From a virus, in the IMG/VR virus record IMGVR_UViG_3300035703_000067, positions 1-64,000 of that record: a stretch of DNA of 64,000 nt, one strand, 5' to 3'. Of this stretch, positions 1,665-49,391 are shown in pieces; the first letter of the stretch is position 1; each line of letters opens with the position of its first letter. The notes under the pieces are model-generated. The model saw only the letters and a list, made by a program, of their open reading frames with translations, did no database searches and was not told the DNA's origin. A program made the position numbers and the translations under genes.

Positions 1665-2699
1665 ATGCCCGAGCTCGAAGCAGCCAACGCTCGCCTCAAG
1701 GCGGGGAAGCTCCGGTGCTCCATCCAACTGCGTGGGCGAGTGTTCAGCCTCGTCGCGACCCTGCCCACCCGGGACGGCGTAGGACGCAAGCAACAACGCA
1801 TCCCCCTCCCAGACGCCGATCTCTTTGAAGCCGAGCGTCGGGCCGTGATGCTCGGCGAACAACTCCGCACAGGCAGCTTCACCTGGGAGGCATGGGAGCA
1901 AGCGCAAGATCCCGCCTCCATCACCGTCGCCGACTTCATCGAAGCCGCCAAGGCGCTCCACGCCTCCAAGTACCGCAAGGACCCCGAGCGCGGCGCCAAC
2001 GCCTGGAGCAAGAAATGGGCTCCCGCGCTGCGCAAGCTCCCGCCTTCAGGGGCCATCACCGAGGCCGTCTTGCTTCGCACCATCCGCAAGCTCCCCGCCG
2101 GGAGCGCTTCCCGACGCGACCAGGGCAACCTTCTAAGCCAAGTCGCCAAGTCCCTTGGCTTAGAAACCGAACCCCTTCTTGAAGCCTGCCGGGGCTATGG
2201 CGTCGACAAGCTCACCGAGCGCGACATCCCGACCGACGCCGCCATCGAAGCCGCCATGAAGAGCATCCGGCTCCCCCATTGGCGCTGGACCTTCGGCATG
2301 TGCGCGGCCTACGGACTCCGCCCCCACGAATGCGCCGGCCTCACCTGGCTGGAAGACAACTGGATCGAGGTCCACGACAAGACGAAAACCGGTGCACGCC
2401 GCGTGCCGCCTTGCCCAAGCGCGTGGGTGGAGCGCTTCGCCCTACGGGAGCTCCCCCGACCAACCCAATCCGCCTCCACCCTGACCAAAGCCTTCAACGA
2501 CGGCCTCGACCGAGACGGCGTGGCCATCAAGCCCTACAACCTGCGCCACGCCTTCGCCCTACGCCTGCTCGACAAGGGCGTCTCCGCCGACCTCGGAGCA
2601 AGACTTATGGGACACAGCTTGCAAGTCCACCAGTCCACCTACCAACGATGGATCGAGGGCGACCGGATTCAGAAAGCGATGCAGGGCATAACCCTATGA
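1665..2699 (+). CDS. int: Tyrosine site-specific integrase
   Basis: A 344-residue tyrosine recombinase that would recombine attP with the host tRNA. The catalytic domain fills the C-terminal half: YGLRPHE (R219), NLRHAFALR (R294, H295), LMGHS (H317) and TYQRW (nucleophile Y326). The usual first histidine of the HxxR box is a tyrosine here, as in some phage integrases. The N-terminal 150 residues would hold the arm- and core-binding parts and are not recognisable by motif. The ATG at 1665 is preceded by AGGAA, which overlaps the right arm repeat. The gene is followed by an excisionase-like gene on the same strand. Confidence 0.95.
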   Translation: MPELEAANARLKAGKLRCSIQLRGRVFSLVATLPTRDGVGRKQQRIPLPDADLFEAERRAVMLGEQLRTGSFTWEAWEQAQDPASITVADFIEAAKALHASKYRKDPERGANAWSKKWAPALRKLPPSGAITEAVLLRTIRKLPAGSASRRDQGNLLSQVAKSLGLETEPLLEACRGYGVDKLTERDIPTDAAIEAAMKSIRLPHWRWTFGMCAAYGLRPHECAGLTWLEDNWIEVHDKTKTGARRVPPCPSAWVERFALRELPRPTQSASTLTKAFNDGLDRDGVAIKPYNLRHAFALRLLDKGVSADLGARLMGHSLQVHQSTYQRWIEGDRIQKAMQGITL

Positions 2700-14954: not shown

Positions 14955-15818
14955 ATGTCCAACAGCGAAATCCACGACTACCTGACCGAAGTAGGTCGCC
15001 ACCCCGTTCTCTGCAAAGAGGCGCAACTTCGCCATTGTCAACGGATTTACGCCTGGGTGCACCACGAGGCCGGCCGCGAAGGCGCCCCGAATGCAGTGCG
15101 TCGTTCAGGCCAGCGCTCCATGGACGTGATGATCCGCACCAACACGCGCCTGGTGGTGTCAATCGCCAAGCGCTACCAGGGCCGAGGGCTCGACCTCCCC
15201 GACTTGATCCAAGAGGGCAACCTCGGTCTGATTCGTGGCCTCGAGCTGTTCGACCCCACACGCGGCTACGCGGTCTCGACCTATGTGTACTGGTGGATCC
15301 GCCAAGCGGTGACGCGCGCAATCCACAGTCACGCCCGTTTGATCCGCATCCCGATCAACACCCACGAACTCCTGGGGCGCATCCAGCGCTTCATCGCCGA
15401 GACCGGCGCCTTAACAGGGCGCCGCCCCACAGTCACCGAGATCGCCGAACACGTCAACACCAGCGAAGCGCGCGTAATCGAGGCCCTGGACCATCACGCG
15501 GTGACGGTGTGCATGTCCCTCGATGTGCTCTGCCGCGAGGGCGAGAGCCCGTTGATCACCCTTATCCCGGACGAGAACCAACCGGAATCCTACGAGAACC
15601 TCCAGGCGTTACAGAACCGCGAAGCGGTGAAGCGCGCCATGCGGGAGGTGCTCACCGAGACGGAAGCTCAAATCCTGCACGGCGTCTTCTACGAGAACAT
15701 GACCTTCCGCGCCCTATCCGAGGAGATGGGATGCAGCCGAGCGCGTGTCGGTCAGATCCATTACGCAGCTCTGAACAAGTTGCGCATCCACCTATCCAGA
15801 AAGGGGCACGAGGTATGA
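14955..15818 (+). CDS. RpoD-family sigma factor
   Basis: 287 residues from ATG 14955. Region 1.2 is DYLTEVGRHPVL. Region 2 runs NTRLVVSIAKRYQ, DLIQEGNLGLIRGLELFD, GYAVSTYVYWWIRQAVTRAI. Region 3 is RIPINTHELL to TVTEIAEHVNTSEARV. Region 4 ends in the helix-turn-helix TFRALSEEMGCSRARVGQIHYAALNKLR. All recognition regions are present, so it could direct host RNA polymerase to phage promoters. An extended frame starting near 14673 is only a shadow of the preceding gene. Downstream gene overlap is ATGA. Confidence 0.92.
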   Translation: MSNSEIHDYLTEVGRHPVLCKEAQLRHCQRIYAWVHHEAGREGAPNAVRRSGQRSMDVMIRTNTRLVVSIAKRYQGRGLDLPDLIQEGNLGLIRGLELFDPTRGYAVSTYVYWWIRQAVTRAIHSHARLIRIPINTHELLGRIQRFIAETGALTGRRPTVTEIAEHVNTSEARVIEALDHHAVTVCMSLDVLCREGESPLITLIPDENQPESYENLQALQNREAVKRAMREVLTETEAQILHGVFYENMTFRALSEEMGCSRARVGQIHYAALNKLRIHLSRKGHEV

Positions 15819-16366: not shown

Positions 16367-16744
16367 ATGCCCAAACAACGCTCCGAAATCAGCCTCGATC
16401 GACTGCTCGCCGTCTGCGACACCTTCTACGCCCAACAGGGCTATGTCATCTGGAAGGAAGTCGGCGACGCACTAGGCATCAGCCGTCAAGCTGTCCAACT
16501 ACGCCTCCGCGCCGCCGTCGAAAAAGGCGACATCAAGCCAGAACTGGTCGAGAAGTACCAGAGCCTCGCCTCACGCCGCGCCGCCGCCCGAGAACGGGAC
16601 CGCCAACACAGCCTTTCAAAGCGCTACATCACCTACACCCCTGAGAACCTCAAGTGGTTGCAAGCGGAGTCAGACCGCAAAGGAGCGCAGATCACCGAGA
16701 TCGTTAATGGGCTCATCACCCGAGAACGTGAAAGCACTAAATAG
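16367..16744 (+). CDS. Helix-turn-helix regulator with C-terminal RHH-like segment
   Basis: 125 residues. VIWKEVGDALGISRQAVQLRLRAAVEKG is a helix-turn-helix. The C-terminal YITYTPENLKWLQAESDRKGAQITEIVNGLI resembles a ribbon-helix-helix. It has its own promoter with a palindrome (16311-16341) and is followed by the gene-free region. It may repress itself and act at the related repeat at 17341. Confidence 0.75.
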   Translation: MPKQRSEISLDRLLAVCDTFYAQQGYVIWKEVGDALGISRQAVQLRLRAAVEKGDIKPELVEKYQSLASRRAAARERDRQHSLSKRYITYTPENLKWLQAESDRKGAQITEIVNGLITRERESTK

Positions 16745-16865
16745 CAAGCCAAAAAAAAAAACCACATATATGTGCATATATTTACACGTAGAAGCTGAAT
16801 ACAGCTTAAACAGCTGAAATTACATATACATACATTTTTTTTCTCGTTCTGGAAGTGAGATGAGA
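16745..16865. other. AT-rich non-coding stretch, possible DNA unwinding element
   Basis: About 120 bases, clearly AT-rich against GC-rich surroundings. It has an A10 run, the 12-bp palindrome CACATATATGTG (16763-16774), a hairpin AAGCTG-AATA-CAGCTT (16792-16807), another CAGCTG at 16811-16816 and a T8 run. No gene is visible. Together with the hairpin-dense region that follows, it is a candidate replication origin. This is an inference from composition and position. Confidence 0.4.
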
Positions 16866-16879
16866 TGCATGCCCTATAG

Positions 16880-17560
16880 CCCCCTAGACTGGGGTGGTTG
16901 CGAGTGTGCTAGGATGTTCTCACGCGCAGGCGCGCGGGTATTCCTACTTAGCTTGCCTGGCGTCCGGCGCCTCCCTGGCGACAGCCTTGCGCCGATCGCG
17001 GCGATGCTGTAGGATTCCAGCAGCAACCGAACCGCCCCGGAGAGCGCCGCTCTCGCGGACGGCGTACCGGTTGTGCCCACCCGCACCTGGACAACCGAAC
17101 ACCCTGGCCCCTGGGAGCCCGCGGCTTTGCTGCGCCCATCGGCCAATCGCGCTTCCCTCCTTGTGTGGGTTTCGCGATTCCCGGATTGATCGCTTGACCG
17201 ATCCGGGGGCAAGGGTGCTACGTTAGGTGCAACGCCGGAAGCCTCACGGGGCGACCGGCGGAACCTAGACAATCGAAGAATCGCGCGGCCCGCGCATGGG
17301 AGCGGAACATCTCCCCTCTACCCGCCGCTTTTCTATCTGAGCTAACGCAAGTAACGCGTTTGCACAATGCGTTAGCAGGATAGGCAGTCCCCACACCGGA
17401 CCATAGGTGTGCTGTCACTTGAACCGGCCCGCCGGTCATCCTACAGTCAAGCTGTAGCAAGTGACAGTAAGGTTTGACTCGTTACTTTATAGCGAACCGG
17501 CACAGTCGCACTGTGCAAAGCATTTGCCCCTGGCCTTTTGGTCGGGGGCTTAAACATTTG
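16880..17560 (+). ncRNA. Gene-free hairpin-dense region: structured RNA or origin candidate
   Basis: About 680 bases without a believable gene on either strand. Perfect or near-perfect inverted repeats are dense: GAGAGCG-C-CGCTCTC near 17040, CCCGGAT/ATCCGGG near 17180-17210, TAGGT..GCCGG/CCGGC..ACCTA at 17224-17267, GCTAACGCA/TGCGTTAGC at 17341-17376, CACACC/GGTGTG at 17392-17411, a three-way junction at 17412-17467, GCACAG/CTGTGC at 17500-17516, and a 10-bp hairpin with TTTT loop at 17526-17549. The last lies ten bases before the GGAGG of the next gene. I do not recognise a known RNA family. Confidence 0.4.
17412..17467 (+). other. Three-way junction / cruciform element
   Basis: An outer 10-bp perfect stem CTGTCACTTG (17412-17421) with CAAGTGACAG (17458-17467) encloses two further perfect hairpins: ACCGGC-CC-GCCGGT (17423-17436) and CTACAG-TCAAG-CTGTAG (17441-17457). 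Only five bases are left unpaired between the stems. Such order is unlikely by chance and fits an RNA switch or a cruciform initiator site. A possible promoter GTGACA-N16-TACTTT (17461-17488) overlaps its 3' arm. Confidence 0.6.
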
Positions 17561-17570
17561 GAGGATTGCT

Positions 17571-17870
17571 ATGCGTATTTCGCATAATCGCCCTCGTTCG
17601 CGCCACAAGCTGGCGCAATGGGAGGCTGAACGCGTTCGTCAGGCGCGCAACGGTTTGATTGTTGAAACAAAACCCAATACAAAACCGGCAGAATCGCGCA
17701 GCTTGCGCGCAGCTTCATTCAAGGAAGCCACACCGTATCGGCGAGAATTGTCGCCCCGCGCTGTTCGCCGTCCGAAACAGCTTAAAGCTGATCAGGCCCG
17801 CAATCGCGCCGCCATTGCCATTGCTGCAACGGGTGATGTGGAATTGTTCCGCGCCGTTGTGCACATTTGA
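17571..17870 (+). CDS. Small basic protein, first gene of the small-gene cluster
   Basis: 99 residues, strongly basic (RPRSRHKLAQWEAERVRQARN, RRPKQLKADQARNRAA). The start at ATG 17571 is chosen because a strong GGAGG lies at 17560-17564. The longer frame from 17538 lacks one and would run through a hairpin. Charge suggests RNA or DNA binding. No family is recognised. Confidence 0.7.
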   Translation: MRISHNRPRSRHKLAQWEAERVRQARNGLIVETKPNTKPAESRSLRAASFKEATPYRRELSPRAVRRPKQLKADQARNRAAIAIAATGDVELFRAVVHI

Positions 17871-17912: not shown

Positions 17913-18104
17913 ATGAACCCTGATCAATTCCGGTACATGTCGCCTACGGGCCTTAAACGCGCCGAAACCCAATGGGTCGGCCGTGTCGAGATTATTTGCC
18001 TTGATAGGTATCAGCGTCTGCCCATGAATTGGGCAATTAAGCACAAAGGCTACCATGAGTTTCGCACACTTAGTGCGGCTAAAAAGTTTGCGAAAGCAAT
18101 CTGA
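17913..18104 (+). CDS. Small hypothetical protein
   Basis: 63 residues, basic, with W- and Y-containing beta-type segments (QWVGRVEIICLDRYQRLPMNWA) and a helical end. It follows the 17571 gene by 42 bp and overlaps none. Base use is more AT-rich than in the replication genes. Function unknown. Confidence 0.55.
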   Translation: MNPDQFRYMSPTGLKRAETQWVGRVEIICLDRYQRLPMNWAIKHKGYHEFRTLSAAKKFAKAI

Positions 18105-18111
18105 GCTGATT

Positions 18112-18312
18112 ATGGCATTAGATCTACTGTCACTGAACCTAACTGACGCGCAACTGCGCGCAGTATCGGCCATGCTGTGTGAATCACAGCAGAAACATAA
18201 CGCGGAACTACTGCACATCCGCGCTGCAGTTAAGCGTGAGACAGACAAGCTCAGACTAATCTCCGCCGATGCGGCATCGCATCGCTTGTGTGATCGTTTA
18301 TGCGCTCTGTGA
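18112..18312 (+). CDS. Small helical protein
   Basis: 66 residues from ATG 18112. An earlier in-frame ATG at 18055 would overlap the preceding gene. It is helical with heptad-like leucines (MALDLLSLNLTDAQLRAVSAML) and a basic second half. Function unknown. A terminator-like hairpin follows at 18331. Confidence 0.55.
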   Translation: MALDLLSLNLTDAQLRAVSAMLCESQQKHNAELLHIRAAVKRETDKLRLISADAASHRLCDRLCAL

Positions 18313-18330
18313 TCATCTCCCACAAACATC

Positions 18331-18401
18331 CCCCAGGCACATTGTGTCTGGGGTTGTTTATGTGAGGTGCTCTTTGCACCTTTTCCCTCTCGCAGTGAGT
18401 T
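18331..18401 (+). promoter_or_regulatory. Structured leader, copy 1
   Basis: First a 10-bp hairpin (CCCCAGGCAC/GTGTCTGGGG, 18331-18353) followed by TTGTTT, then a hairpin AGGTGC-TCTTT-GCACCT (18365-18381), then the box TTTCCCTCTCGCAGTGAGTT (18382-18401), nine bases before an ATG. The same order of elements and the identical 20-base box recur at 19922-19987 before another start. The box has no Shine-Dalgarno, so it may act as an antitermination or translation-control element. Confidence 0.6.
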
Positions 18402-18410
18402 ATCTGCACT

Positions 18411-44304: not shown

Positions 44305-45222
44305 ATGACCACTGAAATCCGTAACGACGAGGTCGGCGTCTTTCTCGCTCGCGAGCTCGAAACGATCCTGGCTCGCACCTTCGAGGTCGAGTACGCCGAC
44401 ATCAAGTACTCGTCCCTGATCCCGATCTCCTCCGAGGTCGGCAATGGCTCTGATTCCTACACCTACCGAGTCTTCGACAAGCAAGGCTCGATGAAGGTGA
44501 TCGGCGACAAAGCGCAGGATCTGCCCCGCGCTGACGTGCTCCGTAAGGAAGTGACCCACCCGGTTCGCTCCCTCGGTGCCTCGTTCGCCTACACCATCCA
44601 GGAGACCCGTGCCGCCGCCATGGTGCCCGGCATGAACCTGGAGCAACGCCGCGCCAACGCCGTGCGCCGCGCCTACGAGGAGAAAGTGCAGGAGATCGCC
44701 TACTTCGGCGATAGCGCTTCCGGCATGAAGGGCTTCTTCAACAACGACCAAGTCGACAAGCTTGTCCCCGACAAGTGGTTCGATGGTGCTAGCACCACCA
44801 CCGACGAGATGCTGGCCCTGCTCAACGAGGCACCCACCCGCCTCGTGCAGAACAGCAACATGAAGGAGATGCCCAACACGATGCTGGTGCCCTACAACGT
44901 GTACCGCATCATCTCCACCACCCCGCGCAGCACCACCTCCGACACCACGGTGATGGAGTTCTTCCTGCGCACCAACCCGATGATCCAAGCCATCGAGCCC
45001 ATCAACGAGCTCGAAGCTGGTAAGTCGAACGGCACCCTCTCCAAGGACCGGATCGTGGTGTACGACCGCAGCCCTGACAAGCTGCAACTGCACATCCCCC
45101 AACCCCTGGAGTTCCTGCCTCCTCTGCGTCAAGCACTGGAGTTCTCCGTTGCTGCTCACGCACGCATCGGTGGCCTTGCTCTGTACTACCCCAAGAGCGC
45201 CCTGGTTCTTGAAAAGGCTTGA
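44305..45222 (+). CDS. Major capsid protein (DUF2184-like)
   Basis: 305 residues from ATG 44305, chosen over TTG 44284 because GGAG lies at 44292-44295. FLARELETILARTFEVEYADIKYSSLIPISSEV, SFAYTIQETRAAAMVPGMNLEQRRANAVRRAYEE and the end LPPLRQALEFSVAAHARIGGLALYYPKS match DUF2184-type major capsid proteins with the HK97 fold. Codon use is strongly GC-rich and uniform, as expected for the most abundant product. Confidence 0.88.
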   Translation: MTTEIRNDEVGVFLARELETILARTFEVEYADIKYSSLIPISSEVGNGSDSYTYRVFDKQGSMKVIGDKAQDLPRADVLRKEVTHPVRSLGASFAYTIQETRAAAMVPGMNLEQRRANAVRRAYEEKVQEIAYFGDSASGMKGFFNNDQVDKLVPDKWFDGASTTTDEMLALLNEAPTRLVQNSNMKEMPNTMLVPYNVYRIISTTPRSTTSDTTVMEFFLRTNPMIQAIEPINELEAGKSNGTLSKDRIVVYDRSPDKLQLHIPQPLEFLPPLRQALEFSVAAHARIGGLALYYPKSALVLEKA

Positions 45223-47231: not shown

Positions 47232-47849
47232 ATGGCCGACTACGCCATTGGTCTTTCGTTTCACAAGGCCCACCGCACCCTGGTGCGGGTGGTTCCCCTG
47301 ACCCCTCCCAACCGCTACTTCGCCTCGCGCAACGCGCAGGGCGTCATCACGCTGCCCACCTTGGCATCAGGAGACTCCTACAAGGTGATCTCCGGTGTAA
47401 GCCAGTGCTCCTTCCAGATCAACGACAACAACCAAGAGTTTCGACTCCTGGGCGATGACGGCTGGAGCGACAGCGTAATCACTGGCGCTTCGGTGCAAGC
47501 CTCGGTGACCACCTACTTTATGAAGGACATCGACGCTCCTGGTGAAGGCGACGTCAACCCGACCTTCAAGGGTGACTACGACGAGGGCTTCGACTCGATC
47601 CAGCGCTGCCGCTACGACAAGAACTTCGAGGTCTACTTCGAGTTCATGAAGGAGCTCGGCCGTGCCGATGGCGACACCGGCAACTGGATCTACGACTTCG
47701 CCGGCTTCAACGCCTGCATCCAGAACTACCAGGAGCAACTCTCCGCCGAGGGTCTCACCGAAATCAGCTTCGACCTGATGTCGCGTGGTCGCCCGGTCTT
47801 CGGCAAGTACGACGCCGGCGCAAACCCCCTGTCGTTCTCTGAGTTCTGA
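47232..47849 (+). CDS. Major tail tube protein 1
   Basis: 205 residues. It begins MADYAIGLSFHKAHRTLVRVVP and has INDNNQEFRLLGDDGWSDSVITG and FEVYFEFMKELGRADGD. A longer relative with the same start and core follows at 47904, so the phage has two tube-type paralogues. GGAG lies eight bases upstream of the ATG. Tube proteins stack around the tape measure. Confidence 0.8.
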   Translation: MADYAIGLSFHKAHRTLVRVVPLTPPNRYFASRNAQGVITLPTLASGDSYKVISGVSQCSFQINDNNQEFRLLGDDGWSDSVITGASVQASVTTYFMKDIDAPGEGDVNPTFKGDYDEGFDSIQRCRYDKNFEVYFEFMKELGRADGDTGNWIYDFAGFNACIQNYQEQLSAEGLTEISFDLMSRGRPVFGKYDAGANPLSFSEF

Positions 47850-47903
47850 TCACCGGTTCAGGAACCGGTCGCTACCACACCCGTCCCGTAGGGAGGAGAC
47901 ACC

Positions 47904-49391
47904 ATGGCCGACTTTTCCAGAGGAGGCGCCTTTCACAAGGCGCACCGCACGCTCATCCGCGCCGTGGAGCCCTCCTCCCCGAGGACGTTTACCAGCACGG
48001 TGGACGCCAACGGCTTCATCACGCCCCCCGCTCTGGGCGAAGCCGAGTACTACGTCGACATGCAGGGCATCTCCCAGATGTCCATCCAGGTCAACGACAA
48101 CAACCAAGACATCCGTGTGTTAGCCGACTCCGGCTGGACGGATGGTGTCGTGATTTCGTCCTCGATCACCGTCTCGGTGACGAGCTACTTCATGCGAGAC
48201 CTCCAGTACGTGGAGAGTTGGGCACCCGGCGTGGTCGCCGACGTCCCTGCGATGGACGACTACAAGAACGCCGCGATCGCCTGCTACATCCCCGATCGCA
48301 CGAGCGGCGCCTGGGAGCGCGGCTTCAGCCTGATCGCCAAGGCGCGCTACGAGAAGGACATCGGCCGCATTGTCCACGACCCCAAGATCCGCAACAACCG
48401 GATCTACATCGAGATCCTCAAGGAGATCGGTCACGCTGATGGCACCCCCAACAGCGACCTCATCTACGACTTCCTTGGTTTCGAGGCTGTGGTCAGCAAC
48501 TACTCCGAGAACGAGAACGCCGACGGTCTCACCGAGGTGAGCTACGACCTGATCAGCGTGGGTACGCCCTCGGTGGGCAAATACACCGAAGGCACCGAAG
48601 CTCCGAAATTCGTGGACGTGTGGACGTACAGCGACTTCCGGGACGCGATCACCAAGGAATCCATCTGTCGCTTCGGCCCCGACTACACGGCCATCGTCGC
48701 CAACACGACCCCGAGTGCGGGCGTGCTCAACGCTCGTTACAACAACGTAACGGGCCAGCTGTGGATGCAGCTCTCCGGCGTGTCGCACATCGGTGTGGGG
48801 CGCATCGTGCGGCTGTACGCGCTGACGTTCAGCTACTTCCAAGACGACGCTTACAACAGCGACTACTTCCCGATGCCTGGTGCCACCACAGACTTCCAGG
48901 TGCTGGAGGTCAAGGACCGGGACGTGCGCTCCTACGGCGTACAAAACGCCACGTACAACAACGTAACCGGTGTAGCCACACTCACGCTCGAGTCGACTGC
49001 AACGATAAGCGTGGGCGACTACATCGGTGTACGCGACCTTAAGTTCAGCCGCCTTGTAAACGGCCAGCCCCTCGTGGATCTGCTCCCTGAGGAGACCGCA
49101 CACTCGATGGTCCAAGTGTTGAGCCTCTCTGGGCAGACCATCACGGTGAACCTCGGAAGCCGACCTGACACATACACATACGCAGGTGAAGGCCGCATCG
49201 AGCTCGGTCCCCTGATGCGCATCAACTTCGGAACCTCGACTTCAGAGCGCTACTACATCAATGGCGGCTCTGTGACCGTGGTAGGCCCCCTCGAGCTCAA
49301 TGGAGTCTTGACCAACGCCACCGGAGCCACCCTGAGCTACAACAACGCCGACGTGAAGCCCCGCTCTTCCAGCGTGTACGCCATCGCCTAA
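47904..49391 (+). CDS. Tail tube paralogue with C-terminal beta repeats
   Basis: 495 residues. The first about 230 align with the preceding tube protein (MADFSRGGAFHKAHRTLIRAVE, VNDNNQDIRVLADSGWTDGVV, YIEILKEIGHADG). The added C-terminal half has two related units, each starting (A)xYNNVTG (ARYNNVTGQLWMQLSG and ATYNNVTGVATLTLES), and a third beta segment. It may decorate the tube surface or form specialised rings. GGAGG precedes the ATG. Confidence 0.8.
   Translation: MADFSRGGAFHKAHRTLIRAVEPSSPRTFTSTVDANGFITPPALGEAEYYVDMQGISQMSIQVNDNNQDIRVLADSGWTDGVVISSSITVSVTSYFMRDLQYVESWAPGVVADVPAMDDYKNAAIACYIPDRTSGAWERGFSLIAKARYEKDIGRIVHDPKIRNNRIYIEILKEIGHADGTPNSDLIYDFLGFEAVVSNYSENENADGLTEVSYDLISVGTPSVGKYTEGTEAPKFVDVWTYSDFRDAITKESICRFGPDYTAIVANTTPSAGVLNARYNNVTGQLWMQLSGVSHIGVGRIVRLYALTFSYFQDDAYNSDYFPMPGATTDFQVLEVKDRDVRSYGVQNATYNNVTGVATLTLESTATISVGDYIGVRDLKFSRLVNGQPLVDLLPEETAHSMVQVLSLSGQTITVNLGSRPDTYTYAGEGRIELGPLMRINFGTSTSERYYINGGSVTVVGPLELNGVLTNATGATLSYNNADVKPRSSSVYAIA

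What the first reader, a model, noticed from the sequence alone, without database searches (positions are those of the whole stretch)
16745..17570. 826-bp gene-free region, AT-rich then packed with hairpins
No believable gene on either strand in an otherwise fully packed genome. An AT-rich stretch is followed by at least eight inverted repeats, several perfect. Two readings: a replication origin with an unwinding element, or a long structured RNA upstream of the small-gene cluster.
Basis: partly seen in the sequence, partly recalled or inferred. Interest (0 to 1): 0.62.

Follow-up and report, generated by a model that had tools for sequence, protein, structure and literature searches.

The report
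Swappable structured RNA locus of cyanophages
A stretch of phage DNA that looked empty belongs to a previously unlisted family of long folded-RNA genes in viruses of cyanobacteria, in which related viruses keep the two ends but exchange the middle for unrelated RNA sequences.

Summary
The gene-free, AT-rich-then-hairpin stretch is real. It lies in a 71.6-kb uncultivated virus record resembling cyanosiphophage S-CBS4.

The same place, just downstream of the phage sigma-factor gene, holds a non-coding locus in 47 other IMG/VR contigs: AT element, about three tandem TTGAC promoters, 450-640-nt RNA core, conserved 3' pseudoknot, terminator. Compensatory changes support the pseudoknot (7 of 18 pairs), the type-I core (18 of 92) and, more weakly, the leader shared by the window (8 of 77). 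Rfam 15, 50,697 phage records and the genome and plasmid collections gave no match to the queries tried.

The striking feature is cassette exchange: phages 94-97% identical in leader and 91-97% at the 3' end carry unalignable RNA cores between them.

The window keeps the AT element, leader (77-82%) and a terminator (18331-18353). Its cassette is odd: a 330-nt hairpin-rich core (z about -6, plus strand) without known relatives, then three small ORFs. It lacks the pseudoknot, so its core may be a long 5' UTR.

Function is inferred: probably a trans-acting phage RNA whose core sets specificity, working like GOLLD/ROOL but not a member.

The parts
14970..15818 (+). phage sigma-70-family factor gene (ORF drawn from 14673); its homologue precedes the RNA locus in the relatives
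   Evidence: PHROG sigma factor E 4e-61; homologue ends 0.9-1.9 kb before the RNA end in 42 of 47 representative loci, the other five have 30-1917 nt of held upstream DNA
16367..16744 (+). DNA-binding protein gene (125 aa; N-terminal helix-turn-helix, all-helical model), directly upstream of the AT element here and in some relatives
   Evidence: weak HTH profile matches; 14-row alignment; AlphaFold model pLDDT 78, pTM 0.50
16745..16863 (.). AT element; 16821-16863 is the conserved part
   Evidence: lowest-GC 100-nt window of the 64 kb; 86% identical to L124 and L119 over 43 nt
16886..16928 (+). first promoter-like site of the leader (TAGGAT at 16910-16915, weak upstream hexamer) and GC-rich CTCACGCGC motif
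   Evidence: aligns with the promoter/CTCACGCGC motif of L004; inference, the strict consensus scan finds no promoter
16987..17015 (+). second promoter-like site TTGCGC-17-TAGGAT
   Evidence: sequence; in the place of the relatives' tandem promoters; not found by the strict consensus scan
17024..17241 (+). conserved structured leader of the family
   Evidence: 77-82% identical to L124, L119, L123, L105 and L137, L136; 8 of 77 consensus pairs with compensatory change
17040..17054 (+). leader hairpin GAGAGC/GCTCTC with compensatory pairs against L124/L119/L123
   Evidence: A3 columns 42-47 with 51-56
17145..17179 (+). leader stem AATCGCG/CGCGATT with one compensatory pair
17194..17224 (+). third promoter-like site TTGACC-19-TACGTT, preceded by TGC
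   Evidence: invariant TTGAC and TGCTA in 7 of 7 aligned leaders; family promoter tally
17231..17560 (+). window-specific RNA core, about 330 nt, hairpin-rich, no relative found
   Evidence: z -6.1 on + against -1.4 on -, -6.6 against -1.9, -4.3 against -1.8 for 17225-17565
17412..17467 (+). three-way junction in the core: 10-bp perfect stem CTGTCACTTG/CAAGTGACAG enclosing two hairpins
17526..17549 (+). hairpin GCCCCTGGCC-TTTT-GGTCGGGGGC at the end of the core, no T run after it
   Evidence: not called a terminator
17571..17870 (+). small ORF, 99 aa, inside the cassette
   Evidence: no family, no relative
17913..18104 (+). small ORF, 63 aa, inside the cassette
   Evidence: no relative
18112..18312 (+). 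small ORF, 66 aa, inside the cassette
   Evidence: no accepted family
18331..18353 (+). intrinsic terminator homologous to the one that ends the RNA in relatives
   Evidence: 18314-18408 is 79% identical to L137 6077-6169

Best explanation
The stretch is the window phage's version of a structured-RNA locus that sits just downstream of the sigma-factor gene in a group of cyanosiphophages. SHOWN by comparison: constant leader, AT element and terminator; exchangeable interior; compensatory base changes in leader, type-I core and 3' module of relatives; plus-strand folding excess of the window's core. INFERRED: tandem sigma-70-type promoters, perhaps read with the phage's own sigma factor, make a long RNA; in relatives it folds into a core capped by a pseudoknot and ends at the terminator. 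It acts in trans as a phage RNA rather than as an mRNA, and the core is the part that recognises a host or competitor component, which is why unrelated cores are exchanged between constant ends. In the window the cassette is a 330-nt core followed by three small ORFs before the shared terminator, so here the RNA may also be the 5' part of a small mRNA.
For: Leader homology, 77-82% over 171-223 nt, E down to 9e-52. Conserved terminator. 41 contigs with one terminator pattern plus 6 by leader or core pattern. Sigma gene upstream in 42 of 47 loci. Pseudoknot: 99.2% of cells paired, 7 of 18 pairs compensated, 0 of 500 shuffles. Type-I core: 18 of 92 pairs, 0 of 500 shuffles, at most 6 when slid. 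Leader: 8 of 77 pairs, 19 of 500 shuffles. Promoters: 44 of 64 leader TTGAC sites have TGC before the best -10 hexamer. Core exchange. No ORF common to the members of a core type and frame-breaking gaps in most types. Window core z -6.1 on the + strand only.
Against: The relatives' cores are hardly more stable than shuffles: types I-V z from +0.5 to -1.6. A consensus fold over all type-II relatives collapsed (-25 kcal/mol for 11 sequences). The window's core has no relative, so no covariation test; it lacks the family's pseudoknot and GGCUC hairpin; three ORFs follow without a terminator between. The strict consensus scan finds no promoter in the window. No expression data. The loci in the count were found by RNA or leader patterns (only searches were independent of the RNA).
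Confidence: 0.6

Rival explanations
1. A long structured 5' leader that controls the downstream small genes in cis (attenuator or stability element) and has no role as a free RNA.
For: In the window no terminator separates the core from ORF 17571, which has a GGAGG ribosome-binding site; the next terminator is at 18331.
Against: In relatives a strong terminator lies between RNA and genes, and the downstream genes differ between relatives while the leader is kept. The cores are exchanged as units.
Confidence: 0.22
2. A replication origin: AT-rich unwinding element followed by hairpins.
For: The lowest-GC 100 nt of the window and a strongly conserved AT motif; short GAGACTC-type repeats next to it in many relatives, though none in the window's leader.
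Against: No turning point of the GC skew here. The AT motif is followed by promoters and a terminated, covarying RNA. The hairpin part changes completely between near-identical phages, unexpected for an origin.
Confidence: 0.08
3. DNA-level hairpins or protein-binding palindromes (operators, packaging or recombination site), with no functional RNA.
For: Inverted repeats fold on both strands: minus-strand z -4.0. An integrase lies in the same genome and a DNA-binding protein adjoins.
Against: The window core is structured on the + strand only; the 3' pseudoknot of relatives needs single-stranded RNA; conserved promoters and terminator point one way.
Confidence: 0.07
4. A mobile ribozyme such as a group I or II intron, or a member of a listed RNA family that is too diverged to score.
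For: Size and mosaic behaviour.
Against: No Rfam family at gathering score in the window or in 16 further loci; weak searches gave nothing plausible; no intron-encoded ORF; the locus stays in one place.
Confidence: 0.03

Closest known systems
[quoted passage not shown]
   Same: Large structured phage/prophage RNA of unknown function; conserved 3' region and less conserved 5' region; linked to tRNA elements (PMC12286853, passages read); a few relatives here end in a tRNA-like fold.
   Different: No Rfam GOLLD match; 450-640 nt rather than over 800; here the unalignable part is the middle, between constant ends; no canonical tRNA nearby.
ROOL RNA (Rumen-Originating, Ornate, Large)
   Same: About 600-nt phage-encoded structured RNA of unknown function, reported as abundant as 16S rRNA in one strain (PMC12286853).
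   Different: No Rfam ROOL match; different phages; interior swapping not mentioned in the passages seen.
OLE RNA
   Same: About 600-nt ornate RNA with unclear biochemical function (abstracts listed).
   Different: Cellular RNA of Bacillota with protein partners; no Rfam match here.
MALAT1/mascRNA-type tRNA-like 3' ends (recalled, not tested)
   Same: L139, L140 and L142 carry a tRNA-like fold at the 3' end of the RNA in place of pseudoknot plus terminator.
   Different: Bacterial virus, no sequence relation; processing not shown.

Membership tests
GOLLD | Match to the Rfam covariance model | tested here: not met
   No gathering-score match in the window, L004, L006, L007, L008, L083 or 11 further loci; none in weak searches of the window region and 11 loci
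GOLLD | Conserved 3' region with variable 5' region | tested here: not met
   Here both ends are conserved and the middle varies
GOLLD | Homo-oligomeric nanocage (14-mer) | not testable with these tools
   needs cryo-EM; property taken from PMC12286853
ROOL | Match to the Rfam covariance model | tested here: not met
The cyanophage RNA locus described here | AT element followed by leader, at the place downstream of the sigma gene | tested here: met
   window 16821-16863 and 17024-17241; sigma at 14970-15818
The cyanophage RNA locus described here | Tandem TTGAC promoters in the leader | tested here: inconclusive
   one TTGAC site at 17194 and two weaker sites by eye; strict scan negative
The cyanophage RNA locus described here | 3' pseudoknot with GGCUC-loop hairpin | tested here: not met
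   absent from the window; also absent from L107/L131 and altered in L126 and L109
The cyanophage RNA locus described here | Terminator at the 3' end | tested here: met
   18331-18353, homologous to L137, but behind three ORFs
Replication origin | GC-skew turning point | tested here: not met
Replication origin | Mapped start of replication or coverage peak | not testable with these tools
   no reads available

The most novel reading that the evidence does not exclude
This is a hypervariable RNA-specificity locus: phages of one group keep a constant promoter leader and a constant 3' cap but exchange wholly unrelated folded RNA cores, as they would exchange immunity or toxin alleles. The core would be an RNA effector in phage-phage or phage-host conflict (superinfection exclusion, decoy or anti-defence), and three relatives cap the core with a tRNA-like structure instead of the pseudoknot and terminator.
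Probability: 0.3. Interest if true: 0.9.

Novelty: new variant of a known kind. Interest (0 to 1): 0.74.

Why it matters
Very few large structured phage RNAs are described, and their functions are unknown. Here is a set of 48 loci in one group of cyanophages with a fixed genomic address next to a sigma gene, promoters, a covarying 3' pseudoknot, and natural exchanges of the core between near-identical phages. Such allele swaps are the signature of a specificity determinant and make the question 'what do large phage RNAs do' testable: keep the ends, exchange the core, read out host range, immunity to a second phage, or RNA partners.

Tried and rejected
Origin of replication: no skew turning point. 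Known RNA family: Rfam gathering scans of the window and 16 loci and weak scans gave nothing credible; tracrRNA and microRNA lines are chance. tRNA or tmRNA: ARAGORN found none in the window or in 21 loci. Protein genes: no family match for ORFs of the stretch. Named phages: the whole region, its core, and RNA regions of L004 and L105 gave no match among 50,697 phage records; type-II core none in plasmids. Cellular genomes: the terminator pattern and the DNA-binding protein alignment gave none. Relatives of the window's cassette through its ORFs: none. Pseudoknot or GGCUC hairpin in the window: none (a loose descriptor gave 0 hits against a mean of 0.95 in shuffles). Partner for the GGCUC loop: no GAGCC position is common to the core types. 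Consensus fold of all type-II relatives failed. The claim that relatives' cores are unusually stable was rejected; the case for them rests on covariation, and types III-V have no covariation test with a control. L097, brought in by a short pattern, shows no sign of the locus (read). Papers: six answered searches showed no paper on this locus; only listings and abstract openings were seen, except passages of PMC12286853.

Full report
WHERE IT IS. The window is bases 1-64000 of a 71,591-base virus record. Its proteins are those of a tailed phage with terminase, portal, head protease, major head protein, DNA polymerase, integrase and a sigma factor. The nearest isolate by major head protein (54.9%) and portal (40.1%) is Synechococcus phage S-CBS4; sigma-factor hits include cyanophages KBS-S-2A, S-CBS1 and S-CBS3. 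I therefore read it as a cyanosiphophage; the host itself was not tested.

THE OBSERVATION. Between the gene ending at 16744 and the start at 17571 no ORF has a family match. 16745-16845 is 28.7% GC and the lowest-GC 100-nt window of the 64 kb starts at 16741. Hairpins exceed chance for stems of 7 bp or more and of 9 bp or more, less clearly for 8 bp or more. Over the whole stretch the plus-strand fold exceeds its shuffles by 21%; 33 control windows average 4% and reach 12% at most. The excess sits in 17231-17560, on the plus strand only: z -6.6 against -1.9, -6.1 against -1.4, -4.3 against -1.8 for a slightly longer piece. The leader part taken alone is ordinary (z -2.9 and -2.6).

RELATIVES. 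Searching with the sigma factor and with the adjacent DNA-binding protein, that is, independently of any RNA feature, led to contigs (L002-L004, L006, L007, L085-L088) that have a gene-free stretch of about 900 nt in the same place. L008, more distant, has a non-coding stretch of about 500 nt there without detected homology. A 21-base-specified terminator pattern then found 41 contigs, all of this locus when read; a leader pattern added one contig (L137) and a type-II core pattern five (L138-L142). That makes 47 contigs besides the window. The sigma gene ends 0.9-1.9 kb before the RNA end in 42 of 47 representative loci; the other five hold only 30-1917 nt upstream, and one of these (L118) has the sigma gene in another stretch of its contig, L136. 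In the window the distance is longer because of the three ORFs.

LAYOUT. (1) AT element of the form ACATAyAyATTAAATTTT, right after the sigma gene or the DNA-binding protein gene. (2) Leader with about three TTGAC sites 90-130 nt apart. Among 64 leader TTGAC sites, selected only for these five letters, 44 have TGC directly before the best -10 hexamer and 36 a spacer of 17, the look of extended -10 promoters. (3) RNA core of roughly 450-640 nt. (4) 3' module: stem ACGGTnn/nnACCGT, a pseudoknot GCGTGy/rCACGC made with its loop, and a hairpin with loop nnnGGCUC. (5) Intrinsic terminator. By my reading the GGCUC hairpin is complete in 37 of the 41 contigs; L107, L131, L126 and L109 lack or alter it.

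COVARIATION. 3' module, 14 distinct variants: 99.2% of cells paired, 7 of 18 pairs with changes on both sides, no shuffle of 500 as high, at most 1 when slid. Type-I core, 9 sequences: 96.4% paired, 18 of 92 pairs changed on both sides, 0 of 500 shuffles, at most 6 when slid. Leader, 7 sequences including the window: 8 of 77 pairs, 19 of 500 shuffles for that measure and 0 of 500 for the number of cells; the window itself carries compensated pairs in the hairpin at 17040-17054 and the stem at 17145-17179. Structures were derived from the same alignments, which favours them; the pseudoknot was drawn by hand from the sequences.

RESULTS AGAINST. Minimum free energy does not mark the relatives' cores: types I-V have z between +0.5 and -1.6, while L139, L140 and L138 have -3.7, -2.8 and -2.3. 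Type II over 11 diverged members gave no consensus fold, although motifs such as GAGGGACAAGC and CCCTnACCGACC persist. Types III-V have no covariation test with a control. The window's core has no relative at all, and lacks the pseudoknot.

CODING. In the relatives' cores no ORF of 60 aa or more is shared by all members of a core type on the plus strand except in near-identical pairs; substitutions in type III show no clear codon rhythm, and gaps in most types break frames.

CASSETTES. L113 and L094 are 96.6% identical over 771 nt of flank and leader and 96.5% over the last 115 nt, with no similarity between; L120 and L117 are 94% over 838 nt and 91% over the last 87 nt with unlike cores; L086 and L002 share only 39 nt and the last 117 nt (95.7%); L129 and L119 share core and 3' end (85% over 631 nt) under unlike leaders. 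Type IV keeps pieces of type I at its ends. The core is thus exchanged as a unit between constant ends. The number of types (five to six) is my grouping.

THE WINDOW'S VERSION. Leader 17024-17241 matches L124 81.8%, L119 79.7%, L105 80.7%, L123 77.1%, L137 79.8% and L136 82.3%. The same contigs are colinear with the window at 64-82% in neighbouring blocks. After 17241 similarity stops. It resumes at 18314-18408, the terminator region, 79% to L137 (terminator 18331-18353). Between lie the 330-nt hairpin-rich core and three small ORFs without relatives. No terminator separates core and ORFs, so in this phage the structured RNA may be the first part of a longer transcript.

HOW IT WORKS. Shown: a conserved non-coding locus with structure-preserving changes and exchanged cores. 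Inferred: transcription from the tandem promoters; a trans role; the core as specificity part; a link to the neighbouring sigma factor. The AT element may be the site of the adjacent DNA-binding protein (helical model with pLDDT 78); this is a guess.

KNOWN OR NEW. It works like the large phage RNAs GOLLD and ROOL in size, setting and unknown function (PMC12286853, passages), but it is not a member: no Rfam match. Six answered paper searches showed nothing on this locus. I file it as a new variant of a known kind; the interior swapping is the new trait.

Noticed in passing
L139 (minus strand, about 794-890), L140 6410-6510, L142 (minus strand, about 1500-1610): In these three type-II loci the RNA ends in a tRNA-like fold (8-bp acceptor-like stem and T-arm GGCGGTTCAAATCCGCC or GGGGGTTCAAGTCCCCC, both differing between L139 and L140 with pairing kept) in place of the pseudoknot and terminator; ARAGORN and Rfam do not call it a tRNA. 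Pairing was checked by eye only.
   Followed up: partly
window 44751-45000: Strongest local folding of the 64 kb in 250-nt windows (z -5.6, plus strand), inside the major head protein gene.
   Followed up: no
window 47701-48526: One control stretch of 826 nt with z -7.7 (10% excess), inside genes.
   Followed up: no
L008 9195-9740: In a more distant relative the same place holds about 540 nt of non-coding DNA with a long near-perfect stem around AACGTTTGCGC, no detected homology to the family; z -2.8 on the plus strand and -2.6 on the minus strand.
   Followed up: partly
leaders of L094, L110, L114, L128 and others: Repeated GAGACTC-like octamers (1-5 per leader) between the AT element and the promoters, possibly operator or iteron sites; none in the window's leader.
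   Followed up: partly
window 1665-2699: Integrase gene, so the phage may be temperate.
   Followed up: no
L107 and L131: Variants that lack the 3' pseudoknot and GGCUC hairpin although the terminator is kept, perhaps decayed copies.
   Followed up: no
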